From positions 1 through 64,000 of IMG/VR virus record IMGVR_UViG_3300032116_000064: a stretch of DNA of 64,000 nucleotides, one strand, 5' to 3'. This stretch comes from a virus. Positions within the stretch are counted from its first letter, which is position 1, and each line of letters opens with the position of its first letter. The translations under genes and the position numbers were made by a program. Shown here in pieces: positions 794 through 37,780 of this stretch. The notes under the pieces are model-generated. The model was not told the DNA's origin and did not search any database. It was given only the letters and a program-made list of their open reading frames with translations.

Positions 794-1018
794 TCAGCGG
801 GGGATTGCAATAAATCCCTTGAAATGGGAAAACGTCAACTTGAGAACCCTATTCGGATACTTTTCGTTGATGTACACTTGAGCAGTGCTTTTCCGATTAT
901 CGGTAGCACCGACATACTGTACAACCGTACCGTTTTCATCGGTAACTTTCCAAACCTTCTTTTGGACCATCTTGGGAAGGCTTGCAATAAAACTGTTAAT
1001 ATGGGTAACTTTTTCCAT
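794..1018 (-). CDS. Early protein, paralogue of the gene at 2438-2659 (74 aa)
   Basis: Start taken at 1018 (MEKVTHIN) because its paralogue at 2438-2659 starts at the equivalent residue. An in-frame ATG at 1024 is possible, as it overlaps the upstream stop (TGATG). By eye about 70% of residues match the paralogue, including HIN, FIASLP, KVTD, ATDNRK, EKYP and LTFSHF. The pattern of short strands around KVTDxNG and ATDNRK suggests a compact alpha/beta protein. I do not recognise a known family. An AAGG ribosome site lies 9 bases before the ATG at 1018. It appears co-transcribed with the 48-residue gene just upstream. Function is unknown. Confidence 0.75.
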   Translation of the reverse strand: MEKVTHINSFIASLPKMVQKKVWKVTDENGTVVQYVGATDNRKSTAQVYINEKYPNRVLKLTFSHFKGFIAIPR

Positions 1019-1023
1019 TTTCA

Positions 1024-1170
1024 TCAACCTTTCATGCTTTCAAAAAACTTACGAACCATTTCATCATTCTTTTTTATATCCTTATTCACAACCGGAAGAC
1101 TATAAGCAATCTTCCTATTGTTTTCATTCTTGATTCTCTTAATCGCATTTTTCATTGTCTTATTCATCAT
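1024..1170 (-). CDS. Short basic early protein (48 aa)
   Basis: Two adjacent ATG codons at 1170 and 1167 precede an open frame ending with TGA at 1024-1026. The product begins MMNKTMKNAIKRIKNEN and is strongly basic, with 13 Lys or Arg residues, and probably helical. The stop overlaps a possible start of the next gene (TGATG), pointing to translational coupling. The ribosome site is a purine tract (AAGAAAGAGAG) about 10 bases upstream. A nucleic-acid or acidic-protein binding role would fit its charge, but no family is recognised. It is the first gene after the 1171-1654 regulatory gap in the leftward direction. Confidence 0.6.
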   Translation of the reverse strand: MMNKTMKNAIKRIKNENNRKIAYSLPVVNKDIKKNDEMVRKFFESMKG

Positions 1171-2437: not shown

Positions 2438-2659
2438 TCAGCGAATCGTAATCAATCCGCCAAAGTGTGAGAAGGTAAGGGTAAGAGCCTGAGAAGGATA
2501 CTTCTCATCGATATACTTCTGAGCGGTATCCTTGCGGTTATCGGTAGCACTCACACACTGGATAACCTTTCCATTCTTATCGGTAACCTTCCAGATTTTC
2601 TTTTCCACAATCCTAGGAAGGCTAGCGATGAAGTCGTTGATATGAGTTGTCTTTTCCAT
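2438..2659 (-). CDS. Early protein, paralogue of the gene at 794-1018 (73 aa)
   Basis: ATG at 2659 follows the purine tract AAAGAAAGAGAGAAAGAAA, with a perfect promoter at 2690-2717. The protein begins MEKTTHINDFIASLP. It matches the 794-1018 product at about 70% of positions, without gaps apart from one residue near the C-terminus (IAIPR against ITIR). The conserved ATDNRK and LTFSHF blocks suggest a functional surface. The family is unknown to me. The two copies sit in separate transcription units about 1.4 kb apart, so they probably arose by duplication and then diverged in role or target. It is the first early gene in the leftward direction. Confidence 0.8.
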   Translation of the reverse strand: MEKTTHINDFIASLPRIVEKKIWKVTDKNGKVIQCVSATDNRKDTAQKYIDEKYPSQALTLTFSHFGGLITIR

Positions 2660-2689
2660 TTTCTTTCTCTCTTTCTTTCTTATGCTCTT

Positions 2690-2717
2690 ATTATACCATA
2701 CTTATCGGCCATGTCAA
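2690..2717 (-). promoter_or_regulatory. Consensus sigma-70 early promoter
   Basis: Minus strand: TTGACA (2712-2717), 16 bp, TATAAT (2690-2695). Perfect hexamers suggest strong host-polymerase transcription immediately after infection. Confidence 0.85.
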
Positions 2718-2834
2718 GGGGCAATCTCAAATATTTTTAAATATAATCTTGTGCCAAAGCAATAAATATTCTCTATAGCAAACGCTGTGCCAAATACATT
2801 ATTCTCTTAAACAGAAGATCGTGATGATCATGTG

Positions 2835-2884
2835 ATTAGTCGTAAGTCTATGTGCTATAAGGGTTTACGGCAAACGCGGCCCAC
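2835..2884. repeat. Intergenic repeat element, copy 2
   Basis: Shares with 1449-1499 the blocks ATTAGTCGTAAGTCTAT, AAGGGTTTACG and CGGCCC in the same order and spacing. In both copies CGTAA near the start and TTACG further on form an inverted pair. Confidence 0.65.
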
Positions 2885-3027
2885 CCTAGACTCTCTGATG
2901 TTAAGATAGGGGATATAGGGGGGTTTTACTTTATAGAAGGTTTTTTCTACGACATGCCGGAAAGTCGAGGGTAGTTGGAACGCAATAATCATTAAATCTT
3001 TGATAAGTATTACCCCATCTTCTTGGA

Positions 3028-3843
3028 TCACCCTTGAGTCTGCCTATCTCTTGCATTTTCTCGGTACGATCCACCCTCAAGATGTTTTGGATTCACACAT
3101 CGTCGGTTGTTACACTTGTGTCTGACTAGTTCTGGATATTCACCAGTATATTTGAACAGTGAAACGCGATGAGGTTTGAAATATCTTGTTGCTACCTGTA
3201 TACTTCTACCATATCCATGATAATCAACACTTCTCCACTCCCAACAACCGCTGTCGGTAACAGTATAGTTATCCTCATTTAATTTCTGAGCCGCCATCAA
3301 TAGCTCTTCCTTTACCTCTTCTATATCGATATTGCGCCAAGCGTTATATAGGCCACAATATGAAGCTATCATCTTACTCTCTTTAAACAGTAAATCATTT
3401 TCATCTTCTAGCGACCAAATATAACAATTGATTGATAATCGATCATTGTAGTGAAACTGCATAAAAGCGTTGTAGTGACTATTAGAGTTTAGAGATGCTA
3501 GATGGTTTTTGTATCTCTCCCCAATATTAGTAGAACTACCAACATAATATCCTACATATCCATTCTTCTTCCTCATTTCGATAACGTATATGCCGCATTG
3601 TTCTAGATTGAAATCAACTGTAGATTTCTGAGATAATTCTATCGAAGAAATAGTTTTAATATCAAAGTCTTTACAAATCTTTTTGATTTGTGCGTAACTT
3701 AATCCTGTAATAGTTTCTATTTCTAAAAACGTAAGATGTTTATTTCTTAGAGAACGAATCTGATTTGCTTCAGCCAACCCAAATCCAAATTGATTTCTTT
3801 TACGTCGTTTGATCACATCCATTGAACCTTTTGGTCTACTCAT
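3028..3843 (-). CDS. Fused GIY-YIG and HNH_3 endonuclease (271 aa)
   Basis: The protein combines three parts. A basic N-terminus with a probable helix-turn-helix (about residues 37-60) should bind DNA. A GIY-YIG nuclease follows, with GIY at 84-86, YVG at 100-102, Arg 110 and a catalytic Glu candidate at 155. The C-terminus is an HNH_3-type domain with CWEW at 200-203, KPHR at 223-226, HKC at 242-244, CVNPKHL at 249-255 and a late Asn. Each nuclease type is common in phage homing endonucleases; both in one chain is unusual. The start at 3843 has AAGGGA seven bases upstream. A TATAAT at 3858-3863 may be its -10 box. It lies at the divergent junction between early and late regions, as expected of a mobile endonuclease insertion. 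Confidence 0.85.
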   Translation of the reverse strand: MSRPKGSMDVIKRRKRNQFGFGLAEANQIRSLRNKHLTFLEIETITGLSYAQIKKICKDFDIKTISSIELSQKSTVDFNLEQCGIYVIEMRKKNGYVGYYVGSSTNIGERYKNHLASLNSNSHYNAFMQFHYNDRLSINCYIWSLEDENDLLFKESKMIASYCGLYNAWRNIDIEEVKEELLMAAQKLNEDNYTVTDSGCWEWRSVDYHGYGRSIQVATRYFKPHRVSLFKYTGEYPELVRHKCNNRRCVNPKHLEGGSYRENARDRQTQG

Positions 3844-4942: not shown

Positions 4943-5427
4943 AAATCCCTAAAAATATGACAGAGGCCCAAGTTATAGATCAGATTAACATTGTTGTTAA
5001 TAGAATGTCGGCCCGCTATACATTCCACGGTTATGAGGTTGATGATATAAAACAAGAAGCTTTCATGATTTGTATGGACGCACTGGAGCGATATGATAGC
5101 AACCGCCCCCTTGAGAATTTCCTAGCAGTTCACTTATCTAACAGGCTTAAAAACTTTGTTCGTGATAACTTTTACACTAAGGGCGAAGAAGAAAAGAAGC
5201 GAGTTCTAAAACCAAGCAGTTTGTCTTATGAAGATTTTACCCCTAGTACAGAATACAACAATGACAATAAAATAGATGCCAGAAGTTTACAAGACACCGT
5301 TGACCGCAAGTTACCTTCAGAATATCGCGCAGATTACTTAAAGTTAATCAATGATGTATACGTGCCAAAGAAACGAAGAGAAGAAATCATAGCGATAATT
5401 AAGGAGTTGTTAGATGAAGAAGGGTAG
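4939..5427 (+). CDS. T4 gp55-like late sigma factor (162 aa)
   Basis: The start at 4939 (MKIPKNMTEAQV) overlaps the previous stop as ATGA. Residues about 25-77 match sigma-70 region 2 as found in T4 gp55. RYTFHGYEVDDIKQE is followed by a helix ending ALERYD and then a NFLAVHLSNRLKNFV helix. gp55 has the equivalent RFNFSGY...KQE block. In that family region 2 binds the core polymerase coiled coil and the -10 element of late promoters. The C-terminus is charged and helical (KKRREEIIAIIKELL); whether it binds a sliding clamp as in T4 cannot be told. Family length is similar (gp55 is 185 aa). It probably directs host RNA polymerase to the GTGTATA-type motifs listed here. Confidence 0.75.
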   Translation: MKIPKNMTEAQVIDQINIVVNRMSARYTFHGYEVDDIKQEAFMICMDALERYDSNRPLENFLAVHLSNRLKNFVRDNFYTKGEEEKKRVLKPSSLSYEDFTPSTEYNNDNKIDARSLQDTVDRKLPSEYRADYLKLINDVYVPKKRREEIIAIIKELLDEEG

Positions 5428-6199
5428 GATTTCTAAAGACGAGGAACGTATTATCGGGCGACTGATTGATCACGTTACCGTAGAGGATATTGCCAAGCAA
5501 CTCGACCGCGATGTTGAATCGGTTGACAACTTCGTTAAGCGTAAGTTCAAGGTTGGACTATCAAACGAAGAAGCCGCCGCATATTCACTAGAAGACCGCC
5601 CCTACTGGATTGAACTAGAAAACCAGTTTACTCCTTCTGAGTTAGAGCTTTTTAAGTATCACTGGTCGCGCATAATTTCGCAGTTCAAAGATGACGTTTT
5701 TCCAACAGAAGAACTACAGGTAGTAGATGTTATTAAGCTAGAAATACTCATGAACCGCTGCTTGAAGAGTAATAAGGATAATCTCAATGAGATGACCGTT
5801 TTAGAAAAAATGTTAGCAGACGAACGCGCCGTCGATAAGGATCAACGTGACCACGACTACGTTTTAAATCTAGAGCGTCAGCTTGCTTCATTACGGGCTT
5901 CGCAAGAAGCCCTCAATAGGGATTACCGCGAACTCCAAAGCAAAAAGGCTAGTATGTTACGCGAAATGAAGGGAACCCGTGAACAGCGTATTAAACGACT
6001 AGAAGATAGTAAGCAAAGTTTCACCTCTTGGGTTGCTAATTTAATGCAAGATCCAGAAACTCTAAAGCGATACGGGATCGAAATGGAAAAGATGAGGCTT
6101 GCTATGAATAAGGAGCGTGAGCGACTAAGTGCTTTTCATCAATATGAGGATGGGCAGATTGATCAACCATTCTTAACTCCAGATACAGTAATAGATTAA
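5414..6199 (+). CDS. Candidate terminase small subunit (HTH plus coiled coil, 261 aa)
   Basis: AAGGAG lies seven bases before the ATG, inside the end of the sigma gene (14-base overlap). Residues about 8-45 form a helix-turn-helix (ERIIGRLIDHVTVEDIAKQL then a second recognition helix with many Lys/Arg). Residues about 125-215 are strongly charged heptad-like sequence (LERQLASLRASQEALNRDYR), a long coiled coil. An N-terminal HTH followed by an oligomerising coiled coil is the usual plan of terminase small subunits, and TerL is encoded downstream. However, five kilobases of other genes intervene and no family signature is certain. A different DNA-binding packaging or transcription protein remains possible. 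Confidence 0.5.
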   Translation: MKKGRISKDEERIIGRLIDHVTVEDIAKQLDRDVESVDNFVKRKFKVGLSNEEAAAYSLEDRPYWIELENQFTPSELELFKYHWSRIISQFKDDVFPTEELQVVDVIKLEILMNRCLKSNKDNLNEMTVLEKMLADERAVDKDQRDHDYVLNLERQLASLRASQEALNRDYRELQSKKASMLREMKGTREQRIKRLEDSKQSFTSWVANLMQDPETLKRYGIEMEKMRLAMNKERERLSAFHQYEDGQIDQPFLTPDTVID

Positions 6200-6200
6200 A

Positions 6201-7457
6201 ATGCACGACAATATTTTATACATCGGAAGTGGCCGATCAGCAAAACTCATTGAGAAAATAGATTTATCTAAATATACTATTGTTTGTGTAAATAATGCAT
6301 GGAGACTTTTCGAGAATTCTAGATTTGACGTTTGGATTCATAGCGGAGATTTTCCTAATGAACACAGACCAAAGAATAAAAACTTTGATTTAGAAGTTAG
6401 TTATAAACAATATAGCAAATCTATTGAAAATATAGTTAATAAATTAAATTTACAATGTAAATCACCGCAGCATTACTTAGGATATACTATTTTTTTTAAT
6501 GGTTTATATTGGATTTGTGATACATTCAATCCAAAAACTATTTCATTACTAGGATTTGACCATGATTATAACCCAGAAAAAATTCAAAAATGGAACGATA
6601 ACAAAAAACCAACTCCACAAAATTCATTTTTAAAACCAAAAAATCAATCTATTAAAGATTGGTCAGAAGAATTCTTTTCTGGTATGGAATCTGATTTTTT
6701 TTATGGACATGGAACACCAGATCCACTGCGACTTGGTATGGATCACTTAAAGCAAAAAATGTCTCAAGCCTTAAATCTATTAGAAAGACTTGGAATAGAA
6801 ATTATAAACTTATCCCCAGTTAAATCTGAATTTAATGAAGTTATTCCTACAAAATTAGAAAAAAATAATATGATAATAAATGAAGTAAATAGAATAAAAA
6901 CAGAAAGCAAAATTTATAAAACTCGCGGTGGCGTTATGTCAGATACATTAAAGTCTGTAGGAACAGGCGATATTTTTGAATTTGGTGTTTTTACTGGCAA
7001 TTCCCTAAGATTTATTTCTAAGTATATGCCAAATAATAAAATATATGCATTTGATTCTTTCGAAGGACTTCCAGAGGCATGGCCAGGATCTAGAGGAGTG
7101 ACGCATAAAAAGGGACATTTCAATGTTAATGGTAATCTTCCAAAAATCGATAATTCAAATATTTCTTATGTTAAAGGTTTCTTTGAAGACACTCTTCCAT
7201 CATTTTTGCAAAACTATAATAATACCGTTTCTTTAATTCATATAGATTGCGATATATATTCATCAACTAAAACTATATTACATTATATGAAACCGTATAT
7301 AAAAAAAGATACTGTTATAATATTTGATGAACTTATTGGATATCCAGACTTTGAAATAAATGAAATAAAAGCGTGGATGGAATTCATAGATGAAACACAA
7401 TTACAATATAAATATTTGTATTCAGCTAAAGAGCAAGTATCTTTAAAAATAATATGA
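6201..7457 (+). CDS. Bifunctional protein: nucleotide-type N-domain fused to TylF-like methyltransferase (418 aa)
   Basis: The N-terminal half (about 1-215) starts ILYIGSGRSAKLIEKIDLS and includes CVNNAW and LLGFDHDY. This plan resembles DUF115 or sialyltransferase-like Rossmann domains that handle sugar nucleotides. The C-terminal half (about 240-418) is a class I SAM-dependent methyltransferase of the TylF/Methyltransf_24 type: motif I FEFGVFTGNSL (259-269), AFDSFEGLPEAW (283-294), IHIDCDIYSST (346-356) and IIFDE (373-377). TylF-type enzymes O-methylate sugars. It has no clear ribosome site and begins one base after the previous stop, so it probably depends on coupling. The cassette context suggests modification of glycans on host surface or virion. 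The N-domain assignment is weaker than the methyltransferase. Confidence 0.75.
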   Translation: MHDNILYIGSGRSAKLIEKIDLSKYTIVCVNNAWRLFENSRFDVWIHSGDFPNEHRPKNKNFDLEVSYKQYSKSIENIVNKLNLQCKSPQHYLGYTIFFNGLYWICDTFNPKTISLLGFDHDYNPEKIQKWNDNKKPTPQNSFLKPKNQSIKDWSEEFFSGMESDFFYGHGTPDPLRLGMDHLKQKMSQALNLLERLGIEIINLSPVKSEFNEVIPTKLEKNNMIINEVNRIKTESKIYKTRGGVMSDTLKSVGTGDIFEFGVFTGNSLRFISKYMPNNKIYAFDSFEGLPEAWPGSRGVTHKKGHFNVNGNLPKIDNSNISYVKGFFEDTLPSFLQNYNNTVSLIHIDCDIYSSTKTILHYMKPYIKKDTVIIFDELIGYPDFEINEIKAWMEFIDETQLQYKYLYSAKEQVSLKII

Positions 7458-7816
7458 ATAAACAAGGTAAAGTTTGGGGAAATACGGTAGAGTTATTCAC
7501 CAAAAATAATGTATCTATACATAGAATAGAAATTAATAAAGGCTCTTGTTGCTCCAAACATTATCATAATTATAAATACAATACGTTTTATGTTGAAACA
7601 GGAAAGATAAAAATACAAGAGTGGAAAAATGACTATAATCTTCTAGATGAAACTATCTTATCAAAAGGAGAAATGTGTCAAGTTCCTCCAAAAAACAATC
7701 ATAGATTTATTGGGCTTGAAGACAGTATAGTATATGAAATATACCATGTGGAATTATGTGAAAAAGATATCATCAGAGAAGATGTTGGAAAGGAACAATA
7801 TGAAAACTTACAATGA
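7454..7816 (+). CDS. Small cupin protein (120 aa)
   Basis: One cupin barrel is visible. HYHNYKYNTFYVETGKIKI (36-54) has the HxH...E...G layout of cupin motif 1, with metal-ligand candidates His 36, His 38 and Glu 48. VPPKNNHRF (77-85) is motif 2 with His 83. The size fits single-domain sugar isomerase or epimerase-like cupins. It overlaps the previous stop as ATGA and the next start by 17 bases. Lying between methyltransferases and a GDP-mannose dehydratase, it may act on an activated sugar, or as a sensor for one. The exact reaction cannot be read from sequence. Confidence 0.75.
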   Translation: MNKQGKVWGNTVELFTKNNVSIHRIEINKGSCCSKHYHNYKYNTFYVETGKIKIQEWKNDYNLLDETILSKGEMCQVPPKNNHRFIGLEDSIVYEIYHVELCEKDIIREDVGKEQYENLQ

Positions 7817-8336
7817 AATACAGGGCTGGTTTGATTATCCAAACACATTTGATTTTTTACTATCAACTATACCAGATAATGGTATCTTTGTTGAATGTGG
7901 AGCTTGGCTAGGTTCTAGTTCAGCATATCTATGCGATAAGGCTGGAGATAGGATAAAAATTTATATCGTGGATACATGGCAAGGTTCTCCAGATGAACTG
8001 GAAACTACTCATAAGCTAGCCACAGAAACAGATATCTACACAATCTTCTTAGATAATATGGGTAGTCGTAACTTTACTCCATTACGTATGGACTCTTCTC
8101 TTGCTTCTAAACAATTTGAAGATAATTCATGTGATGTTGTTTATATAGATATGACTCATTCATACGAGGCTGTTAAAAAAGATATTGAATGCTGGCTACC
8201 AAAGGTAAAAGTTGGTGGATACATTTCTGGACATGACTATGGAAATACTCACGGTGTAGTCATGGCAGTAAATGAATTTTTCAGCGGTAAGTTTAAAATA
8301 ATGGATAGCAGTTCTTGGGTAGTAAAAAAGGAATAA
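7800..8336 (+). CDS. SAM-dependent methyltransferase, Methyltransf_24 type (178 aa)
   Basis: The start chosen is ATG 7800 (MKTYNEIQGWF), which has AAGGA five bases upstream; a longer in-frame start lies deeper inside the cupin gene without such support. Residues 29-40 (IFVECGAWLGSS) form the SAM-binding motif I. IYIVDTWQGSP (55-65) is the acidic-loop motif, followed by VVYIDMTHSYEAV and the VGGYISGHDYG turn typical of this family. Members methylate sugars or small hydroxylated substrates. With the fused methyltransferase upstream, two distinct methyl transfers in one glycan pathway are plausible. The substrate is unknown. Confidence 0.8.
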   Translation: MKTYNEIQGWFDYPNTFDFLLSTIPDNGIFVECGAWLGSSSAYLCDKAGDRIKIYIVDTWQGSPDELETTHKLATETDIYTIFLDNMGSRNFTPLRMDSSLASKQFEDNSCDVVYIDMTHSYEAVKKDIECWLPKVKVGGYISGHDYGNTHGVVMAVNEFFSGKFKIMDSSSWVVKKE

Positions 8337-8339
8337 ATT

Positions 8340-9425
8340 ATGAAGGCAATTATATTTGGAGTTACTGGGCAGGATGGAAGCCATCTAGCAGACCTACTAC
8401 TAGAGAAGAACTATCAAGTAGTTGGTGTATCACGAAGGAGCAGTACAGACAATACACAAAGAATAAAGCATATATTGAATCATTCTAGATTCCAGTTAGT
8501 CGAGGGAGACATAACAGATTCTGGTAGTGTTGCTAATGTCCTTAATAATTACGAACATGTAGATGAAGTCTACAACCTCGCTGCCCAATCTCATGTAGGA
8601 ACCTCATTTTCTCAGCCGCTGCTTACTTGGGATATTACCGGAAAAGGTTGCCTAAATATCTTACAGCATATTAAGGATTATATGCCATCGACCCGATTTT
8701 ATCAAGCCTCTTCTAGTGAAATGTTTGGGGCTTGTTATGATAGGGACCGAGAAGGAAATAAATACCAAGATGAAAATACTAAATTTTTACCACAGTCTCC
8801 ATACGCTATTGCTAAGTGTGCCGCTCATCACTCTGTTAGATTATATCGTGAAGCCTACGATTTACACGCAAGTTGTGGTATTTTATTTAATCACGAAGGC
8901 CCGAGGCGTGGCGATAACTTTGTAACCAAGAAAGTCATCAACTGGCTTGCCGATTTTGTACACTGGATGTGTGATAATAATGTAACAAATACATCGTATT
9001 TAGAATCCGACGAAAATTACATTATGTATAATGATGTGACATTTCCTAAATTAATGCTGGGCAATCTAGATTCTTATAGAGATTGGGGCTATGCTGGAGA
9101 TTATGTCGAGGCTATGTGGCTAATGCTTCAGCAAGACGATCCAGACGATTATGTGATATGCACAGAAAAAACCCACTCAATACGCGATCTACTAGATGCC
9201 AGCTTTGGTTATTTTAATATCACAAATTGGAATAAATATGTTGGTCAGGACGAAAGATACTATAGGCCAGCCGAAGTAAATTACCTTAAAGGAAAAGCAG
9301 AAAAAGCAAGAGTTAAGTTGGGATGGACTCCAAAACATGACTTTAATAGTCTTGTAAAACTTATGATAGAAGAGAAATTAAATGAAAAGTTATCGCATAA
9401 TGATAGACATATCAAATGTGTTTAG
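8340..9425 (+). CDS. gmd: GDP-mannose 4,6-dehydratase
   Basis: This short-chain dehydrogenase converts GDP-D-mannose to GDP-4-keto-6-deoxy-D-mannose, the branch point to GDP-fucose, GDP-rhamnose and GDP-perosamine. The Rossmann GVTGQDG loop is at residues 7-13. NADP-selecting SRRSS is at 31-35. The catalytic set is Ser 126, Glu 127, Tyr 155 and Lys 159 (SSSEMFG and YAIAK). The family block NHEGPRRGDNFVTKK follows. Length 361 aa matches bacterial GMD. No reductase or epimerase partner is visible in the window, so the keto sugar must be finished by host enzymes or genes elsewhere. Together with the methyltransferases it points to a methylated deoxy-sugar. Confidence 0.93.
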   Translation: MKAIIFGVTGQDGSHLADLLLEKNYQVVGVSRRSSTDNTQRIKHILNHSRFQLVEGDITDSGSVANVLNNYEHVDEVYNLAAQSHVGTSFSQPLLTWDITGKGCLNILQHIKDYMPSTRFYQASSSEMFGACYDRDREGNKYQDENTKFLPQSPYAIAKCAAHHSVRLYREAYDLHASCGILFNHEGPRRGDNFVTKKVINWLADFVHWMCDNNVTNTSYLESDENYIMYNDVTFPKLMLGNLDSYRDWGYAGDYVEAMWLMLQQDDPDDYVICTEKTHSIRDLLDASFGYFNITNWNKYVGQDERYYRPAEVNYLKGKAEKARVKLGWTPKHDFNSLVKLMIEEKLNEKLSHNDRHIKCV

Positions 9426-9630
9426 CAGAATAAAACACCTATTCCTTAAATCATACAATAGCCCATTTCCAACTATATTTTTGAGTGCAGATGATCCAGA
9501 TGATGCATGTTTTACAGTTCTGAATGATCTTATAAAGATTATCATGAAACAAAATTCGTCAATAGAAATGAGAATAGTTTGTATAGAAATTAGAAAAAAA
9601 TCTAGAATAGACAAAATATATCAATTATGA
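9382..9630 (+). CDS. Hypothetical protein (82 aa)
   Basis: It overlaps the dehydratase by 44 bases and ends in ATGA shared with the HNH gene, so it fits the tightly packed operon. A GAGA lies seven to ten bases before the ATG. The product begins MKSYRIMIDISNVFSRIK, is mostly helical and ends with a basic stretch (EIRKKSRIDK). No domain is recognised. Overlap on both sides and a modest ribosome site support it as real, but no homology can be claimed. Confidence 0.6.
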   Translation: MKSYRIMIDISNVFSRIKHLFLKSYNSPFPTIFLSADDPDDACFTVLNDLIKIIMKQNSSIEMRIVCIEIRKKSRIDKIYQL

Positions 9631-9887
9631 AAAGAAATTACGATAATCCCGCATACTCTGATTTTAGAAAATCCGTCTTAAAAAGAGATAAGAGAAAGTG
9701 TATGATGCCGGGATGTGGTAGAAAAACATGCTTAAATGTTCATCATATTAAGAAATGGGCTTCTGCCTCTTCTCTGAGATATGATCCAGATAATGGTATA
9801 ACACTATGTAAACAATGTCATGATTCTATAAAGGGCAAGGAAATCCATTATGAAGCTCTATTTAAGGAAATAATTAATGCAATATAA
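9627..9887 (+). CDS. Stand-alone HNH endonuclease (86 aa)
   Basis: A compact HNH (McrA-like) nuclease. It has a zinc-binding CMMPGCG (26-32), the catalytic LNVHHIKKW (36-44), the central DNGITLCKQCH (60-70) with Asn 61, and closing Cys/His ligands. Such proteins cleave DNA with one metal ion. They occur either as homing endonucleases or as packaging partners next to terminase genes in HK97-like phages. Here TerL is about 1.1 kb downstream, so a packaging role is possible. The start overlaps the upstream stop (ATGA) and the end overlaps the next gene by 11 bases. Confidence 0.88.
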   Translation: MKRNYDNPAYSDFRKSVLKRDKRKCMMPGCGRKTCLNVHHIKKWASASSLRYDPDNGITLCKQCHDSIKGKEIHYEALFKEIINAI

Positions 9888-10377
9888 AGAAGCCCCTAAA
9901 TTCACTGTGATCAAAGACACAAGAGAGCAAGATGGATATTTTTTTCGTGAGTTCAATACTTGCGCTGGCATGGTCGAAGAAAAACTCGACACCGGAGACT
10001 ATTCCATAAAAGGTATGGAAGATAAGATATGCATAGAAAGAAAAGGATGTGTTGAGGAATTGGCAGTTAATCTTGGTCAAAAGAAACATGCTTTTTTAGC
10101 AGAAATAGAAAGAATGATGCCATTCCCTCATAAATTTATTGTTTTAGAATTTTCTTTGGATGATCTAATAAAGTTCCCAGATGAAACAAGAATACCAGTT
10201 AAGAACAAAGGCTCCTTAAAGATAACTGGTAAATATATGCTTAAGTGTTTGTTTGAATTTCAGTTGTACAATAATGTTCAAATACTATTTTGTGGAAATA
10301 AAACTAATGCATTTATTGCTGTTAGTAGCATACTAAAACGTGTCAATGAAATGTATACAATAGGGAGGAAAAAATGA
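9877..10377 (+). CDS. ERCC4/XPF-type nuclease (166 aa)
   Basis: Residues 11-55 carry the ERCC4 nuclease signature. DTREQDGYFF is followed by KLDTGDYSIKG and CIERKG, matching the GDY...ERK active site of XPF, Mus81 and archaeal Hef. Asp 41, Glu 54 and Lys 56 are candidate metal and catalytic residues. The usual downstream Asp of ERKxxxD is replaced by Glu (ERKGCVEEL). The domain is alone, without HhH repeats. In phages such proteins probably trim branched DNA before packaging or assist recombination. It sits between an HNH nuclease and the protease/TerL genes, consistent with DNA processing ahead of packaging. Confidence 0.85.
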   Translation: MQYKEAPKFTVIKDTREQDGYFFREFNTCAGMVEEKLDTGDYSIKGMEDKICIERKGCVEELAVNLGQKKHAFLAEIERMMPFPHKFIVLEFSLDDLIKFPDETRIPVKNKGSLKITGKYMLKCLFEFQLYNNVQILFCGNKTNAFIAVSSILKRVNEMYTIGRKK

Positions 10378-11018
10378 TGTCTGAACCAGAACTATTGAAA
10401 GATTTTCATGATTACGGGGCTAATATTGCCACTAGGGAAATATTTCTTCACAATCATTACCACGCCGAAGATAACCAAAACCCCGGTGTTGAATATAGAA
10501 TGTCTAATACCTTCATTAAGAACTTGAGGGCATTAGATATGAGGAGCAATGCTAATATAACTATTCATTGCCACAGTATTGGCGGTGAATGGGCTGACGG
10601 AATGGCTATTTATGATGCTATACAGATGTGTAGATCATATGTGACAATTATCATCTATGGTCAGGCTGAATCTATGAGTAGTATTTTTATGCAAGCGGCA
10701 GATTATCGTTATATGACTCCAAATTCCCATTTTATGTCTCATTATGGATCTATTGATATTAATACCGACTATCTTAGTGCTTTGAGTGAATCTGATTATC
10801 ATAGAAAAACAGCTGATACTATGTTTAATATCTATGCCGGAAGGTGTGTAGAGGGCAAGTTCTTCTATGAAAAATTTGGAAAGAAGCCAAGCGTCAAACA
10901 GGTTCGCCAATATTTAATCAGAAAACTGAAATCTGGAGATTGGTATCTCAATGCGGAAGAAACTGTATATTACGGTTTTGCTGATTCTATATTACGAAAC
11001 TGGCATTTCACAGAATGA
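10374..11018 (+). CDS. ClpP-like serine protease (214 aa)
   Basis: The ClpP/crotonase fold is clear. ITIHCHSIGGEWADGMAIYD (62-81) corresponds to the ClpP oxyanion loop region. GQAESMSSIF (96-105) holds the nucleophile Ser 100. NSHFMSHYGS (117-126) holds His 123. GDWYLNAEETVYYGFAD (188-204) supplies an Asp (189) and the closing EA...YG.aD motif. A complete triad suggests an active enzyme. In phages ClpP-like proteins near terL and portal are usually head maturation proteases. A separate protease-scaffold gene lies at 26375, so which one processes the capsid is open. It is preceded by GGGAGG and overlaps its neighbours. Confidence 0.85.
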   Translation: MMSEPELLKDFHDYGANIATREIFLHNHYHAEDNQNPGVEYRMSNTFIKNLRALDMRSNANITIHCHSIGGEWADGMAIYDAIQMCRSYVTIIIYGQAESMSSIFMQAADYRYMTPNSHFMSHYGSIDINTDYLSALSESDYHRKTADTMFNIYAGRCVEGKFFYEKFGKKPSVKQVRQYLIRKLKSGDWYLNAEETVYYGFADSILRNWHFTE

Positions 11019-13003
11019 AAAAAGATAAGTTAAAAATTATAGATGAGGCTTGGCTTGGATTAGATGTCATAGATACAGACATTTTTAATCCAATGTCTAT
11101 CTTAAATCCTTCTGAAGACGATTTTCATCTCAAACTATCTTGGCTTATGAGTAGGCCAGAGTATTTGCCATTCTTATGTCATCAAGTATTGAATATTCAA
11201 CTACTTCCATCTCAGTCTCTCATCATCAATGAACTTTGGAATAGAAAATTCCCTATGCTTGTTGGTAGTCGAGGTCTTGGAAAATCATTTAAATTAGCTC
11301 TTTATTCTATACTTCGTGGAATGTTATTACCCAAAAGAAAAATTGTTATAGTCGGTGCAGCATTTAGACAATCAAAAGTTCTTTTTGAATATATGGAAAC
11401 TATATGGCGTAATGCCCCGTTATTAAGGGATATGTGTGATAGTAATAGTGGTCCCACTAGAGATGTTGATAGATGCACCATGAGAATTAATGAGAGTGTT
11501 ATAACATGCTTACCATTAGGTGATGGTCAAAAGATTAGAGGTCAACGTGCTAACGATATTATTGCAGACGAGTTTGCTTCTATTCCTAGGGATATATTTG
11601 AAAATGTGGTCGCAGGCTTTGCTGCTGTTAGTGCTGATCCTGTACAAAATGTTAAGAGAATGTCTGCAAAAAAGAAGGCAGCTGAATTAGGTATAGAAAT
11701 AGAAACAGAAGAAGAGAATCCAGAAATAAAAGACAATCAAATTATATTGTCTGGTACAGCATACTATGACTTTAATCACTTTGCCACATATTGGAAGAAA
11801 TGGAAATCAATAATAAAAAGTCGTGGTAATATAGCAAAACTAACTGAGGTATTTGGTGGAGAACAGCCGCCAGACACATTTGATTGGCGTCAATACTCTA
11901 TAATACGAATGCCTTATGAACTCTTACCAGTTGGGTTTATGGATGCTGACCAAGTGGCACGATCAAAAGCTACCGTTCATGCTGGTATTTATCAAATGGA
12001 ATATGGGGCTTGTTTTACTAGAGACAGTCAAGGATTCTTTAAGAGATCTCTTATAGAGTCTTGTGTTGTTGGGAATAATGAAACACCTATATTTGATTCT
12101 AAGAAGGACATAATAAAATTTGAAGCTTCTCTTATTGGCGATGTCAATAAAAGATATGTTTTTGGTGTTGACCCAGCATCTGAAGTTGATAACTTTAGTA
12201 TTACTATAATAGAGATTCATGGAGATCACAGAAGAATAGTTCATTGCTGGACTACAACTAGACAAGAACATAAAGAGAAAGTAAAAAAGGGTTATGCTCA
12301 AGAATCAGATTTCTATGCATACTGCGCCAGAAAAATTAGGGATTTAATGAGACTATTTCCATGCGTTCATATTGCTATGGATGCGCAAGGTGGTGGTGTT
12401 GCAGTTATGGAATCGTTACATGACAAAGATAAAATCAAAGATGGCGAGATGGCAATTTGGCCCACTATTGATGACGATAAGCCTAAAGATACAGATGGAG
12501 AAAGAGGATTGCATATATTAGAAATGTGTCAATTCGCTAAGTATGATTGGCTGGCAGAAGCTAATCACGGTATGAGAAAAGATTTTGAAGATAAAGTTTT
12601 GTTATTTCCATTCTTTGACTCTATAACACTTGGATTGTCAAACTCTGAGGATGGTTTAAAAAACAGAATGTTTGATACCTTAGAGGAATGTGTCATGGAT
12701 ATAGAAGAACTAAAAGATGAATTATCTATGATTCAGATGACTCAAACATCTAATGGCAGAGATAGATGGGATACTCCAGAGGTTATAGTTGGTACTGGTA
12801 AAAAGAGTAAAATGCGAAAAGATAGATATTCTGCACTTTTAATGGCAAATATGGCAGCAAGAACATTGCAGCGTACTCCAACTCCAGAAGCATATGAGTT
12901 TTATGGTGGTTTTGCTACCGGTGGCCACGTTCCAGTTAAAGAAGACGAGAAGCTTTATACTGGCCCAAGTTGGTTCTCTGATAACATGAAAGATGTGTAT
13001 TAA
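11015..13003 (+). CDS. terL: Terminase large subunit (662 aa)
   Basis: The DNA-packaging motor has an N-terminal ATPase. Walker A is GSRGLGKS (84-91) and Walker B is IIADEF (182-187) with Asp 185 and catalytic Glu 186. A coupling SGT motif is at 246-248. The C-terminal RNase H-like nuclease shows GVDPASE (Asp 386), AMDAQGGG (Asp 456) and RKDRYSALL (Asp 603), the expected acidic triad. It cuts concatemeric DNA and pumps it through the portal. Length is within the T4 gp17 range. ATGA overlap with the protease gene shows co-translation. The portal gene follows after a 39-base gap. Confidence 0.95.
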   Translation: MKKDKLKIIDEAWLGLDVIDTDIFNPMSILNPSEDDFHLKLSWLMSRPEYLPFLCHQVLNIQLLPSQSLIINELWNRKFPMLVGSRGLGKSFKLALYSILRGMLLPKRKIVIVGAAFRQSKVLFEYMETIWRNAPLLRDMCDSNSGPTRDVDRCTMRINESVITCLPLGDGQKIRGQRANDIIADEFASIPRDIFENVVAGFAAVSADPVQNVKRMSAKKKAAELGIEIETEEENPEIKDNQIILSGTAYYDFNHFATYWKKWKSIIKSRGNIAKLTEVFGGEQPPDTFDWRQYSIIRMPYELLPVGFMDADQVARSKATVHAGIYQMEYGACFTRDSQGFFKRSLIESCVVGNNETPIFDSKKDIIKFEASLIGDVNKRYVFGVDPASEVDNFSITIIEIHGDHRRIVHCWTTTRQEHKEKVKKGYAQESDFYAYCARKIRDLMRLFPCVHIAMDAQGGGVAVMESLHDKDKIKDGEMAIWPTIDDDKPKDTDGERGLHILEMCQFAKYDWLAEANHGMRKDFEDKVLLFPFFDSITLGLSNSEDGLKNRMFDTLEECVMDIEELKDELSMIQMTQTSNGRDRWDTPEVIVGTGKKSKMRKDRYSALLMANMAARTLQRTPTPEAYEFYGGFATGGHVPVKEDEKLYTGPSWFSDNMKDVY

Positions 13004-13042
13004 AAAGTAGCATTCCAATTACATTCCAATTAAGGAAAAACT

Positions 13043-33437: not shown

Positions 33438-34733
33438 ATGGGAAGACCATCGGACCCATGTTTTAAACCGCCAAGGCCATATGTAACATATGCGGAACCT
33501 ACAGCGGTTACAACTCTAGCCCCATATGATATTGATTTTTTTATTGTACCATCTAGCGAGATAGGATGTTCTAAAGATATTGATGCTTCATATTTATTTA
33601 ATATTTTTGCTGATTTGTCTCTTGATAGTTCTTATATTAAAGTAGCAGATATCATTATTCCAGAATCTTGTAAAGGATATAAGTTTGAATTAGCTGGCTC
33701 TGATAGATTCATAATAAGTGGCACAAGTCTTTATTTTAATACATATCTTATTAAATATAGTCAACTTTTTATAGCTAAACTATATATTATCGATGTTAAT
33801 GGACTGCTTGGACGCAAAATTAAAAATTTCTATTTGTCATATGAATGTGCTTACAATTTTTGCCCAACTACTACAACAACGTCTACTAGCACTTCTACCA
33901 GCACTAGCACTTCTACCAGCACTAGCACTTCTACCAGCACTAGCACTTCTACCAGCACTAGCACTTCTACCAGCACTAGCACTTCTACCACAACGACTAG
34001 TAGTCCAACTACTACAGAAAGTCCAACTACTACAGAAAGTCCAACTACTACAGAAAGTCCAACTACTAGCACAAGTACAACCTCACAAGGAGATTGTTGT
34101 AATTGGGACGGAAATACAACTTTAGATTTTGGATCGCTTTGCGGCAAACGTAAACATTCATTTTCATGTACCAAGACAGGAGATAATACTTGGACTTGCA
34201 ATGGAACACTATCGTGTGGCGATGTGATATCAGCTGTTATTTCTTGTAATCCTTCAGCAGATATATCTCCATGTTCATCCAAATGGTCTGCTAGCGTAAA
34301 TGTACCGTGCGTATTGGGGTTTGTTCTTAACCCACCAGATGAATCGTGCGGATGTGACGATCCTCCATATTGGATGTTTAGTGGTGACCCGTCAGGTTGT
34401 AATTGTTGTGAACACTGTGGACCATGCGAAGTATACAATGAAGAAACAGAGACTTGTGAAAGTGTTTGTGTTGATGGAGAAATATGTTGTAGCAATCAAT
34501 GTGTTATACCGGGTACTATATCTGCACCAACATTTTTAGAATATGGAACTGGATTGGTTTGTTCTGGAGGCGCAGGAGTAGATTGCAGAATGCAGTGTCC
34601 CAATGAAGGTTGCGATGTAATATACTCACAATGTTATAATATTAATGGAGAACTACAGTGTTTTTGTTGTGACGGTTTTTGTGGTAGCGGTGGAGATCCT
34701 TGTGACTGTATATCTCAAGTAGGTGGTATATGA
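33438..34733 (+). CDS. Mucin-like Thr/Ser-rich, cysteine-rich virion protein (431 aa)
   Basis: Three parts are visible. Residues 1-140 are a beta domain with FIISGTSLYFNTYLIKY and AKLYIIDVNG, faintly cadherin-like. Residues about 143-215 are a pure Thr/Ser/Pro linker encoded by 18-bp tandem DNA repeats (33891-34070). Residues 216-431 contain about 40 Cys with doublets (CNCCEHCGPC, EICCSNQC), unlike normal cytoplasmic proteins. Many disulfides are expected once outside the cell. No signal peptide is present. This plan is typical of secreted eukaryotic or planctomycete-type surface proteins and unusual in phage. A surface adhesin on the virion is the working guess; I do not recognise a named family. 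Confidence 0.75.
   Translation: MGRPSDPCFKPPRPYVTYAEPTAVTTLAPYDIDFFIVPSSEIGCSKDIDASYLFNIFADLSLDSSYIKVADIIIPESCKGYKFELAGSDRFIISGTSLYFNTYLIKYSQLFIAKLYIIDVNGLLGRKIKNFYLSYECAYNFCPTTTTTSTSTSTSTSTSTSTSTSTSTSTSTSTSTSTSTSTSTTTTSSPTTTESPTTTESPTTTESPTTSTSTTSQGDCCNWDGNTTLDFGSLCGKRKHSFSCTKTGDNTWTCNGTLSCGDVISAVISCNPSADISPCSSKWSASVNVPCVLGFVLNPPDESCGCDDPPYWMFSGDPSGCNCCEHCGPCEVYNEETETCESVCVDGEICCSNQCVIPGTISAPTFLEYGTGLVCSGGAGVDCRMQCPNEGCDVIYSQCYNINGELQCFCCDGFCGSGGDPCDCISQVGGI
33891..33980 (+). repeat. Tandem 18-bp repeat ACTTCTACCAGCACTAGC, five copies
   Basis: Five perfect copies encode alternating Thr-Ser. The near absence of silent differences suggests recent expansion or copy-number change by slippage. 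Any change is a multiple of six residues and keeps the frame. Confidence 0.9.
34002..34055 (+). repeat. Tandem 18-bp repeat AGTCCAACTACTACAGAA, three copies
   Basis: Three identical units plus a partial fourth encode Ser-Pro-Thr-Thr-Glu-type repeats at the end of the mucin-like linker. Confidence 0.85.
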
Positions 34734-37700
34734 CTTGTTTATGTGGATCAATAAATTTACCTAAAGGAACCAAGTATTCAGAATATGGACTTGGATTGAA
34801 GATACTACATACTCAAGGTGAAATAGTTCTAAAGCTGGTACATGACCAAGATATCAATCTAAATTACGGACATACGTTTCTTACCACTACAGAAAAGTAT
34901 CTTTTAAATGAAAACCTAAATATAACTGGTTTTGATTTACTTTGTGAAGGTAAAACAAAGTTATATAACTCTATTATAATCTCAATTTATGATTATTCTA
35001 CTGATAAATTATTATGTCATAGAACATTCAATAGTAACGGAACTGAAGACATTACAAATTTCTATTTACCTTTAGAGTGTGACTCTACAGTATTAAATGT
35101 AGAAAATAAAAAATTTAAAATTCAAATAGATAGCATATGTCAAAACACAAACATAAAATGTTGCGATAAATTGCCAGACTTGTCATTATCTCCAAGCATA
35201 ATGACTGTCCATGGTCCATGTTGTGAAATTGTTGACCCTCCCCCCACAACCTCCACAACAATAAATCCATCTCTTTTGGGTCCACCAAAAAATATTATCT
35301 ATACACTCAGTGGAAATTCAGTTAACATATCTTGGATACCACCAACTATAAGTCATAATCAGACTATTACTAATTATGTATTAGAGTACCAAACACAAAA
35401 TGGCGGAAATTGGACTAGCATAATAATTCCGCCAAGTCAATTAAGTTATGTTTTGTCATCTATTAGTGGAATATATAGCTTTAAGATGGCTACTCAAACT
35501 GCCGGTGGCGTGGGACCATTCTCAGACATATTTTATCCTTACCTTGTTGGTCCACCAACTAATATAGTAGCTAATCCAAATAATGGTTCAATAAATATAT
35601 TATGGACACGACCAGTAACAATTAGTGGACAAACTATAACAAATTATATTTTAGAATACCAAAATGAAAATAGTAATGATTGGACGAGAATAATCATACC
35701 AGCAAATTCATTAAGTTATGTATTATCATCTACTAACTTTACTGGTTATATCATTAGAATGGCTACTCAAACGTCTAGTGGGATTGGGCCATTTTCCGAT
35801 ATTATTGGACCTATTATATATAATACATCTGGACCAGTAAGAGATGTTGATTTAACTTATACAACACCAACCTCAGTAGTAATTACATGGCAACCCGGAT
35901 TAAATACCCCCGGTTTTGGAACTACATCTTATAAATTAGAAATTTCTAACGACGGTGGTAAAACATGGACCACGCTAGAACAAACTAACTCTACTAATTA
36001 TTCTCTTAGCGGCTTATCAAGCGGTATATATCTTATTAAGATAACACAGACATTTAATGGTATATCTGGCATACCAGTTATTATTTACATAATTATTCCC
36101 AACATATCGATAACTACTACTAGTACTTCTACCACCATTGAGCCATCAACCTCAACTAGCACTTCAACCTCAACTAGTACTTCTACCACCATTGAGCCAT
36201 CAACCTCGACTAGTACCTCTACCTCAACTAGTACTACTGTATTACCAACAGATCCACCGCCGTCAACTACTACATCTACTACGCAACAACCAACTACAAC
36301 AAGTAGTAGTTCATCTACTAGTACCAGCACCACGACTAGTCAACCAAGCACCAGCACTACAACTAGCACATCTTCTAGTACATCTTCTAGTACATCTTCT
36401 AGTACATCTTCTAGTACATCAACTACTACTAGCACTACTTTATCGCCACCTACTACGATTTCTCCTAGCACTACAACCAGCAGCACAAGCACATCGACTA
36501 GTAGTACTAGTAGTACTAGTAGTACTAGTAGCACTAGTAGTAGTACATCGACATCAACTACAGACAATCCACCGCCAGCTTACTTTATTTGCGTTATGAA
36601 TAAAGTTATTGTTCCAACTAGCACAACATATTTTCCACCTAACACATCTTACACTACTTCTACTTCTACTACTACTATAGATCCTAATAAATATTATTGT
36701 GTTACAGATAAGATAATTACAACCACTAGTCCGCCGTTTACAACTACTCAGCATCCAGATCCAATATTCTGTATTCCTTTATATGAATATAATCCAGCTA
36801 TTCACATAGCGGTTACTAGTCCTAGTTTAAGTTGTAGCGAATGTCCTCCCATATCGACTACAGCTATGCCTAGTACTACTATGACAACTAATACCACTGG
36901 TACTACTGGAACCACTGGTACCACCACGACATCAGAACCTCCAGAAGTGAAATGTATCACTGTAGGATCTTATGATCCTTTTATTCATAATTTAGTTAGT
37001 GGACCACACGATAATTGTATGTCTTGTGGAACTACCACAACTTCTACTTCTACTTCTACTTCTAGTACTAGTACTACTGCCACTTCCACAACTAATACTA
37101 CTTCACATCCATCAACTACAACTGGAACCACATCGTCACCAACTACTACCGGTACAGTTAATCCAACCGGAACGGATGATCCAAATTCAAGCACAACGAA
37201 TGATCCCGGTAATTCTACCACTTCTTCTCCTACTAATACTCCTAATCCTACCGATGATCCAAACATTGGAGATTGCGGCGGTATACCCGGATTATGTCCT
37301 ATGGGTTCGGTGTGCTGCCCATGCGATTGGAGTCTAGTGGGCGGTTTGTGTTGTCCACCTAATGGTCCTAGTTGTGTTCCACCAACAGATCCAGATAATC
37401 CATCAGCAGCATGTGATCCACCATGCGTTGCATTAGATTGTGACATATGCGTAGATGGTGTATGCAGAGATAAGTGCAATGCTAGCAAATGCTATGTATG
37501 CGATAATGCCGGAACTTGTGTAGAAAATTGCGAGTCTCTTTCCGATATGTCAATTTGCATACAAGGAACATGTTTTAACTGTGGTGCTTGCCAATGGATG
37601 GCAGTTGATGGAAACTGGGTCAAAGTTCATCCAGTATATTTTACACCAATACAAAATGGATGCTTTACAAGCACTTTGGAAAATTCATATATTAATATGC

Positions 37701-37780
37701 CCAATTGTAACTGTCTTCCACCAGCATTTCCAACAAATCAATCACAAGGATTTGAAATAACCCCCTGTTTTAGACTGTAA
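34730..37780 (+). CDS. FN3-repeat, mucin-like, cysteine-rich virion protein (1016 aa)
   Basis: An N-terminal beta domain (1-180) ends in paired Cys (KCCDK, PCCEI). Three fibronectin type III domains follow at about 182-272, 273-365 and 368-455, with the conserved PxN, ISWxPP, ITNYVLEYQ, SYVLS and ATQTxxGxGPFSD positions. Then come Thr/Ser-rich linkers at about 455-620 and 690-840, containing short DNA tandem repeats. They are separated by Cys-containing modules ending YICVM or YCVTDK. A C-terminal 150 residues rich in Cys follows (CCPCDWSL, LCCPP, CDPPCVALDCDIC), resembling granulin/EGF spacing. The gene is coupled to the previous one by ATGA. It is probably an extended surface adhesin; a glycan-decorated stalk is possible but unproven. 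Confidence 0.8.
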   Translation: MTCLCGSINLPKGTKYSEYGLGLKILHTQGEIVLKLVHDQDINLNYGHTFLTTTEKYLLNENLNITGFDLLCEGKTKLYNSIIISIYDYSTDKLLCHRTFNSNGTEDITNFYLPLECDSTVLNVENKKFKIQIDSICQNTNIKCCDKLPDLSLSPSIMTVHGPCCEIVDPPPTTSTTINPSLLGPPKNIIYTLSGNSVNISWIPPTISHNQTITNYVLEYQTQNGGNWTSIIIPPSQLSYVLSSISGIYSFKMATQTAGGVGPFSDIFYPYLVGPPTNIVANPNNGSINILWTRPVTISGQTITNYILEYQNENSNDWTRIIIPANSLSYVLSSTNFTGYIIRMATQTSSGIGPFSDIIGPIIYNTSGPVRDVDLTYTTPTSVVITWQPGLNTPGFGTTSYKLEISNDGGKTWTTLEQTNSTNYSLSGLSSGIYLIKITQTFNGISGIPVIIYIIIPNISITTTSTSTTIEPSTSTSTSTSTSTSTTIEPSTSTSTSTSTSTTVLPTDPPPSTTTSTTQQPTTTSSSSSTSTSTTTSQPSTSTTTSTSSSTSSSTSSSTSSSTSTTTSTTLSPPTTISPSTTTSSTSTSTSSTSSTSSTSSTSSSTSTSTTDNPPPAYFICVMNKVIVPTSTTYFPPNTSYTTSTSTTTIDPNKYYCVTDKIITTTSPPFTTTQHPDPIFCIPLYEYNPAIHIAVTSPSLSCSECPPISTTAMPSTTMTTNTTGTTGTTGTTTTSEPPEVKCITVGSYDPFIHNLVSGPHDNCMSCGTTTTSTSTSTSSTSTTATSTTNTTSHPSTTTGTTSSPTTTGTVNPTGTDDPNSSTTNDPGNSTTSSPTNTPNPTDDPNIGDCGGIPGLCPMGSVCCPCDWSLVGGLCCPPNGPSCVPPTDPDNPSAACDPPCVALDCDICVDGVCRDKCNASKCYVCDNAGTCVENCESLSDMSICIQGTCFNCGACQWMAVDGNWVKVHPVYFTPIQNGCFTSTLENSYINMPNCNCLPPAFPTNQSQGFEITPCFRL
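36368..36415 (+). repeat. Tandem 12-bp repeat ACATCTTCTAGT, four copies
   Basis: Four perfect copies encode Thr-Ser-Ser-Ser. Adjacent simple-sequence tracts make the region prone to in-frame length change. Confidence 0.9.
36497..36541 (+). repeat. Tandem 9-bp repeat ACTAGTAGT, five copies
   Basis: Five copies, one with a single change, encode Thr-Ser-Ser within the second Thr/Ser-rich linker. Confidence 0.9.

What the first reader, a model, noticed from the sequence alone, without database searches (positions are those of the whole stretch)
6201..9425. Sugar-modification cassette placed inside the packaging operon
A two-domain methyltransferase, a cupin, another methyltransferase and GDP-mannose 4,6-dehydratase lie between the candidate small terminase and terL. 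Together they could make a methylated 6-deoxy sugar from host GDP-mannose. No glycosyltransferase or ketoreductase is visible, so the end product, whether on host surface or on virion proteins, is open. The mucin-like virion proteins at 33438-37780 are attractive acceptors, but that is speculation.
Basis: partly seen in the sequence, partly recalled or inferred. Interest (0 to 1): 0.6.

Follow-up and report, generated by a model that had tools for sequence, protein, structure and literature searches.

The report
Swappable sugar-tailoring slot in phage genomes
A large group of uncultured phages always carries a sugar-building enzyme gene just upstream of its DNA-packaging motor gene, and beside it a slot where sugar-attaching and sugar-decorating genes are swapped in and out, probably so that each phage can coat its own particles (or its host's surface) with a different sugar.

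Summary
The four genes are real and lie exactly at 6201-9425. ORF1 is an N-terminal domain plus a TylF-type methyltransferase; then come a cupin, a Methyltransf_24 protein (true start 7800) and a GDP-mannose 4,6-dehydratase (GMD). (1) GMD is not part of a unique insert. It is a core gene of this uncultured phage lineage: every terL-selected contig reaching far enough upstream has it in the same position (45/45 and 31/31), and all 80 viral GMD relatives retrieved have the same synteny. (2) Only the 6201-8336 stretch is variable. It occupies a terS|GMD slot that is empty in 50 of 105 loci and in 49 holds 1-4 genes, mostly glycosyltransferases, methyltransferases and sulfotransferases, exchanged at gene boundaries. 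(3) Glycosyltransferases are not absent: the record carries five Pfam-supported ones outside the window, and the ORF1 N-terminal domain belongs to a family that weakly resembles sialyltransferase/MptE-like folds, is fused to a GlcNAc-transferase in one phage and sits directly after the major capsid gene in two others. Best reading: a modular virion-glycan (less likely host-surface-glycan) diversification locus. The target is inferred, not shown. New variant of a known kind (virus-encoded glycosylation).

The parts
5414..6199 (+). upstream border of the slot; candidate small terminase (function unproven)
   Evidence: conserved in position next to GMD in 105 loci; only a weak PHROG hit, D5-like regulator, to aa 2-46
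6201..6896 (+). ORF1 N-terminal domain (aa 1-232): candidate glycosyltransferase of a family without a Pfam model
   Evidence: weak PHROG alpha-2,3-sialyltransferase hit aa 8-40, E 0.006; AF2 model pTM 0.71; Foldseek viral library: MptE-like E 5e-4, GT29 E 0.012; PDB: CstII E 0.026, nothing below 0.001; bacterial and viral relatives with NNAW, DFP and GxxDPLR motifs; fused to a GlcNAc glycosyltransferase in L281
6897..7457 (+). ORF1 C-terminal domain (aa 233-418): TylF/Methyltransf_24 SAM methyltransferase, probably sugar O-methyltransferase
   Evidence: Pfam 1e-12; CalS11 TDP-rhamnose 3'-O-methyltransferase, E 5e-11; 35.6% identical to C-terminal half of Che8 gp108
7454..7816 (+). cupin, overlaps ORF1 stop by 4 nt; similar cupins occur in cyanophages
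   Evidence: Cupin_2 E 1.9e-6; cyanophage hits; NCBIfam WbuC-like cupin E 1.8e-4, below cut-off
7800..8336 (+). Methyltransf_24 protein (178 aa), commonest cargo family of the slot
   Evidence: Pfam 2.6e-19; 97% and 95% identical in L006 and L009, next to GMD there too; dN/dS 0.05-0.12
8340..9425 (+). GDP-mannose 4,6-dehydratase, core gene of the phage lineage
   Evidence: Pfam 2.4e-106; PDB 1n7g E 1e-90; S125, E127, Y155, K159 and the GxTGQDG motif invariant in 41 sequences; core in 45/45 and 31/31 terL-selected loci
9382..9630 (+). conserved 82-aa ORF overlapping the GMD end, function unknown
   Evidence: 32-88% identity in loci that reach it
9627..13003 (+). downstream border: HNH, ERCC4 nuclease, ClpP-like prohead protease, terL
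   Evidence: Pfam and PHROGs; conserved order
33438..37780 (+). two mucin-like proteins, candidate acceptors (inference)
   Evidence: Ser+Thr 92% in the richest 60-residue windows

Best explanation
This is a modular glycan-modification locus. GMD, a fixed gene of the phage lineage, turns GDP-mannose into GDP-4-keto-6-deoxymannose. That sugar is then reduced (by a host enzyme, by a phage enzyme missing from this partial record, or by GMD itself) to a 6-deoxy sugar nucleotide such as GDP-rhamnose or GDP-fucose. Phage glycosyltransferases (the cluster at about 81-89 kb and probably the ORF1 N-terminal domain) attach it, and the TylF-type and Methyltransf_24 enzymes methylate it. The slot between terS and GMD is where tailoring genes are swapped between related phages by recombination at gene boundaries, so that each phage makes a different glycan. 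The most likely acceptor is the phage's own virion protein. Shown by computation: gene identities, core status of GMD, slot variability, exchange breakpoints, glycosyltransferases in the same genome. Inferred: reaction products, order of steps, acceptor, and benefit.
For: GMD in every terL-selected locus with enough upstream sequence: 45/45 and 31/31 (some contigs are in both sets); all 80 viral GMD hits, down to about 50% identity, in the same synteny. GMD divergence tracks terL (Spearman 0.74 over 107 loci); the lineage's GMDs fall on one side of a branch in a tree with bacterial and other viral GMDs. terS-GMD gap is over 300 nt in 49/105 loci, against 0-12 of 95-136 for the other neighbouring core pairs. 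Cargo: 57 of 88 ORFs in clusters whose representative matches GT2, GT6, GT11, GT25, GT29, sugar-binding GT, methyltransferase, sulfotransferase or cytidylyltransferase families. Breakpoints at gene boundaries against L002, L005, L006, L007, L009; the Methyltransf_24-GMD block has dS 0.19-0.28 against L006/L009 where flanking genes have about 1.05-2.0, with the identity drop near 9446. Glycosyltransferase cluster in the same genome, partly conserved in two other large records. ORF1 N-terminal relatives lie directly after the major capsid gene in L283, one gene or two after it in L282, and are fused to a GlcNAc-transferase in L281. ORF1 C-half resembles mycobacteriophage Che8 gp108, annotated as glycosyltransferase.
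Against: No direct evidence of any glycan or of its location. No 4-ketoreductase gene found in this partial record. GMD scores below the NCBIfam equivalog cut-off (356 against 415 bits), so the exact substrate is not assured. The ORF1 N-terminal assignment is weak (no PDB hit below E 0.001). Half of the slots are empty, so cargo is dispensable. Some cargo is not sugar-related (fatty-acid hydroxylase, 2OG-Fe oxygenase, HNH-like) and about a quarter is unannotated.
Confidence: 0.58

Rival explanations
1. The same locus modifies the host cell surface (O-antigen or capsule) during infection, for example to block superinfection or re-adsorption to debris. GMD, glycosyltransferases, methyltransferases and sulfotransferases act on host polysaccharide.
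For: Cargo families such as GT11, GT25 and Caps_synth-like are typical of surface polysaccharide loci; cyanophage S-SCSM1 carries GMD, GDP-fucose synthase and alpha-1,2-fucosyltransferase and its authors read them as cell-wall modification genes (PMC9602691).
Against: Genes sit in the head/packaging operon (presumably late) rather than among early genes; no O-antigen polymerase, flippase or membrane glycosyltransferase was noticed in the slot; relatives of the ORF1 N-terminal domain sit next to capsid genes.
Confidence: 0.27
2. The sugar is put on the phage DNA (hypermodified base) as in T-even phages.
For: Phage glycosyltransferases and nucleotide-sugar genes serve DNA modification elsewhere, e.g. 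Shewanella phage Thanatos, which carries a hydroxymethyltransferase/thymidylate synthase homologue (PMC12838424).
Against: No member of the thymidylate synthase/hydroxymethylase family PF00303 in 13 records of this lineage, including two of 132-136 kb; diversity of sulfotransferases and methyltransferases is unusual for base modification. A ThyX-type route was not tested.
Confidence: 0.05
3. GMD is an auxiliary metabolic gene that drains or redirects host GDP-mannose, with no specific glycan product; slot genes are unrelated passengers (morons).
For: Half of the slots are empty while GMD stays; some cargo is not sugar-related.
Against: Cargo next to GMD is mostly glycan enzymes; the Methyltransf_24 gene and GMD moved together and are under purifying selection.
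Confidence: 0.1

Closest known systems
Mycobacteriophage virion glycosylation (Che8 gp108-110 type; Freeman et al. 2023, cited in PMC13313380)
   Same: Two-domain gene whose methyltransferase half is 35.6% identical to the ORF1 C-half, beside further glycosyltransferases; glycosyltransferase plus methyltransferase genes are taken as a sign of glycosylated virions.
   Different: In Che8 the genes lie near the right end of the genome and no GMD is annotated in the stretch read; the ORF1 N-half did not match gp108 (match starts at residue 233). The 2023 paper itself was not available to read.
Chlorovirus (PBCV-1) capsid glycosylation with virus-encoded GMD/GMER
   Same: Virus-encoded GMD feeding virus-encoded glycosylation of the major capsid protein; PBCV-1 GMD also reduces its product to GDP-D-rhamnose (PMC5408694), which would solve the missing-reductase problem.
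   Different: Eukaryotic algal viruses; no swappable slot of this kind is known to me there (own knowledge).
Cyanophage nucleotide-sugar genes (S-SCSM1, DSL-LC03)
   Same: GMD with GDP-fucose synthase and fucosyltransferase in phages.
   Different: Their GMD groups with bacterial ones, is about 44% identical to this one, and in DSL-LC03 does not lie beside terL.
Maf/MptE-like (DUF115), GT29 and GT42 sialyltransferase-type folds
   Same: Weak fold and motif resemblance of the ORF1 N-terminal domain.
   Different: No Pfam membership, no PDB match below E 0.001; own conserved motifs (NNAW, DFP, GxxDPLR).

Membership tests
GDP-mannose 4,6-dehydratase (GMD) | Pfam GDP_Man_Dehyd / SDR fold with closest solved relatives being GMDs | tested here: met
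   E 2.4e-106, far above cut-off; the best PDB sequences are GMDs, the next class (a reductase) only at E 1e-23
GDP-mannose 4,6-dehydratase (GMD) | nucleotide-binding GxTGQDG and catalytic Ser/Thr-Glu-Tyr-Lys residues | tested here: met
   GxTGQDG motif, S125, E127, Y155, K159 invariant in 41 sequences; assignment of catalytic roles from knowledge of the family
GDP-mannose 4,6-dehydratase (GMD) | NCBIfam equivalog TIGR01472 curated cut-off | tested here: not met
   356.1 bits against 415; still by far the best of 18 families. So it is filed as a divergent GMD-type dehydratase, not as a certified equivalog
GDP-mannose 4,6-dehydratase (GMD) | activity on GDP-mannose | not testable with these tools
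   needs enzyme assay
TylF-type O-methyltransferase (ORF1 C-half) | Pfam TylF / Methyltransf_24 above cut-off | tested here: met
   45.5 bits against 23, and 49 against 26.3
Glycosyltransferase of GT29/GT42/MptE-like type (ORF1 N-half) | significant match to a family model or solved structure | tested here: inconclusive
   no Pfam hit; PHROG E 0.006; Foldseek viral MptE-like E 5e-4, GT29 0.012, PDB CstII 0.026
Mycobacteriophage-type virion glycosylation genes | fused glycosyltransferase-methyltransferase gene | tested here: inconclusive
   methyltransferase half homologous, N-half not shown homologous
Virion glycosylation system | glycan on virion proteins | not testable with these tools
   no isolate
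T-even-type DNA glycosylation | dCMP/dUMP hydroxymethylase (PF00303) | tested here: not met
   none in 13 records; the records are partial

The most novel reading that the evidence does not exclude
The locus is an antigenic-variation-like system of phages: a fixed nucleotide-sugar enzyme anchors a recombination slot in which relatives exchange tailoring enzymes, so that otherwise similar phages present different virion glycans (methylated, sulfated, fucosylated or sialyl-like), with escape from host receptors, defences or grazers as the selective force.
Probability: 0.3. Interest if true: 0.85.

Novelty: new variant of a known kind. Interest (0 to 1): 0.62.

Why it matters
Sugar genes in phages are usually treated as sporadic auxiliary genes. 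Here a nucleotide-sugar dehydratase is as fixed as the terminase in a large uncultured lineage and is flanked by a hot spot for glycan tailoring genes. That makes a testable case that some phages depend on making a particular sugar, and that virion (or host-surface) glycans diversify by cassette exchange. It also brings to notice a bacterial and viral protein family without a Pfam model (the ORF1 N-half) that may be a new glycosyltransferase family.

Tried and rejected
Single-sequence AlphaFold of ORF1: useless, pLDDT 34. Single-sequence scans for ORF1 relatives in viral contigs found only the same phage; the N-half alone found nothing in phages, plasmids or genome contigs; relatives came only through the genome search, whose hits in the two other phyla searched look like chance (phospholipase, terminase, GT2). 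Direct BLAST of the ORF1 N-half against the GT29 gene of L063 gave no match, so the idea that ORF1 is simply the fused form of L063's GT29 + TylF gene pair is not supported by sequence; the parallel of architecture remains. PDB sequence profile search for the N-half: nothing credible. DNA glycosylation was considered and set aside. An attempt to correlate terS and cargo divergence with terL failed for a technical reason and is not used.
Full report
What was checked. The window is the first 64 kb of a 101,537-bp IMG/VR virus record. The reported ORFs are present at 6201-9425 with the domains claimed: TylF/Methyltransf_24 in the C-half of ORF1, a cupin, Methyltransf_24, and a GMD-type dehydratase. 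The second methyltransferase starts at 7800: its relatives start there with MKTYNE and DNA similarity to L006 and L009 resumes at 7797-7798. GMD, an 82-aa ORF, HNH, ERCC4 nuclease, ClpP-like protease and terL follow.

GMD is a core gene. A scan of viral contigs with terL gave 80 relatives. In all 45 of them (the window's own phage left out) with at least 2.9 kb upstream of terL, GMD is present, in the same place. A second, more distant terL scan gave 31 of 31; some contigs occur in both sets. A scan with the GMD alignment kept 80 viral loci from 96% down to about 50% identity, and all 80 have the order sig - terS - slot - GMD - HNH - ERCC4 - (ClpP) - terL as far as the contigs reach. Pairwise identity of GMD follows that of terL (Spearman 0.74, 107 loci; ERCC4 0.85, ClpP 0.84, HNH 0.63). 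The closest bacterial GMDs found reach 47%. In a tree of 61 sequences the lineage's 34 GMDs need one label change and are parted from bacterial ones and from the cyanophage GMD (support 53/97 for the one-branch grouping, 97/88 for the bacterial side), so one old acquisition is the simplest reading but the deepest branches are not firm. Catalytic residues are invariant. The protein is below the NCBIfam equivalog cut-off and so is called a divergent GMD.

The slot. In 105 loci the gap between terS and GMD is at most 60 nt in 50 and over 300 nt in 49; the other neighbouring core pairs exceed 300 nt in 3/95, 6/132, 12/136, 0/114, 1/118 and 4/131. The empty form joins the terS stop to the GMD start within a few bases. 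The 49 filled slots hold 88 ORFs in 36 similarity clusters (several contigs are near-identical, so counts are of loci, not of events). By scanning one representative per cluster, 57 ORFs in 20 clusters fall in glycan-type families: 23 glycosyltransferases (GT2, GT6, GT11, GT25, GT29, sugar-binding type), 24 methyltransferases, 8 sulfotransferases and 2 cytidylyltransferase-like proteins. Thirty-three of 49 filled slots hold at least one such gene. Exceptions: FA_hydroxylase in three, 2OG-Fe oxygenase in one, HNH-like genes in three (by eye), and the rest unannotated.

Exchange. Against L006 and L009 (GMD 95-96% identical) DNA similarity stops at 6189/6195, at the end of terS, and resumes at 7797-7798, the start of the Methyltransf_24 gene; the middle is unrelated. 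Against L002, L005 and L007 it stops at 6195-6201 and resumes at 8327-8328, just before GMD. Against L006 and L009 the Methyltransf_24-GMD block has dS 0.19-0.28, while terS, HNH, ERCC4 and terL have about 1.05-2.0, and identity falls from about 92% to about 80% near 9446. So the Methyltransf_24 gene and the GMD allele moved together more recently than the surrounding core genes diverged. The proposal that the compact stop/ribosome-site/start junctions help recombination is a guess.

ORF1. The C-half is closest among solved structures to CalS11, TDP-rhamnose 3'-O-methyltransferase, and among phages to Che8 gp108 and relatives, annotated as glycosyltransferase or glycosyltransferase/methyltransferase. 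The N-half has no Pfam model. Relatives were found in the phylum of an Undibacterium genome (Pseudomonadota; E down to 7.6e-6; alignment) and in four other virus contigs. In L280 (48%) it lies beside a GT2-like gene that is itself 49% identical to one at about 95.7 kb of this record; in L281 it is fused behind a GlcNAc glycosyltransferase (E 4e-64); in L283 it follows the major capsid gene directly, and in L282 it lies between the capsid gene and a head-tail attachment gene, with two small genes before it. With a six-sequence alignment AlphaFold2 gave pTM 0.71, mean pLDDT 70. Foldseek: viral library MptE-like (E 5e-4) and GT29 (0.012); PDB nothing below 0.001, CstII sialyltransferase at 0.026. 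Together with the PHROG alpha-2,3-sialyltransferase hit (E 0.006) this points to a sialyltransferase/Maf-like glycosyltransferase, which I hold at about 60%.

The rest of the pathway. The record has a glycosyltransferase cluster at about 81.1-88.9 kb (one GT2, three GT4, one sugar-binding type) with a weak methyltransferase; the three GT4 genes are conserved in order in two other large records. The only PF01370 protein in this record and in a 132-kb relative is GMD, whereas a 135.8-kb relative also has a GDP-fucose-synthase-like gene (below its equivalog cut-off). So the reduction step is open: host enzyme, missing part of the record, or GMD itself as in PBCV-1 (PMC5408694).

Target. Virion is preferred for four reasons: the genes lie in the head/packaging operon; ORF1-N relatives sit beside capsid genes in other phages; the nearest phage parallel concerns virion glycosylation (Freeman et al. 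2023, known here only through its citation in PMC13313380); and the phage has extreme Ser/Thr-rich proteins at 33438-37780. Host surface remains a serious rival. DNA is unlikely (no PF00303 protein in 13 records).

Novelty. Virus-encoded glycosylation, GMD in phages and variable tailoring genes are each known kinds; the fixed place of GMD in a whole uncultured lineage with an adjoining slot for glycan genes was not found described in the papers searched, a limited library. Hosts and habitats of these contigs were not established here.

Noticed in passing
record G000 about 80.3-88.9 kb (L084:318-8866, outside the window): Cluster of five glycosyltransferases by Pfam, a weak methyltransferase and several unannotated ORFs; the three GT4 genes are conserved in order in G001 and G002.
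   Followed up: partly
record G000 about 89.2-93.9 kb (L084:9231-10799 and 12314-13936): What looks by eye like a DNA polymerase III alpha subunit split into two ORFs with an exonuclease-like gene (and in G000/G002 an HNH-like gene) between; the arrangement is conserved in G001 and G002.
   Followed up: no
window 33438-37780: Two proteins with mucin-like stretches, up to 92% Ser+Thr in 60 residues, between virion-type genes.
   Followed up: partly
L095:109-4910 and L096:24-9146 (G002): Two further sugar islands in a related 135.8-kb record: GDP-fucose-synthase-like gene, and by eye RmlA-, RmlB/D- and CMP-sugar-synthetase-like genes.
   Followed up: partly
L282:3992-4570 and L283:919-1515: Relatives of the ORF1 N-terminal domain just downstream of HK97-type major capsid genes in two other phages; L282 has a second, distantly similar gene (2613-3155) in between.
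   Followed up: partly
L194:3885-4334, L221:1313-1768, L224:4549-5004: A fatty-acid hydroxylase family gene as the cargo of the slot, which fits neither sugar nor DNA work.
   Followed up: no
window 9382-9630: Short ORF overlapping the end of GMD, kept in most relatives (32-88% identity), no known domain.
   Followed up: no
window 794-1027 and 2438-2659, minus strand: Two similar small ORFs (MEKVTHINSFIASLP / MEKTTHINDFIASLP) that look like paralogues in the left-hand region.
   Followed up: no
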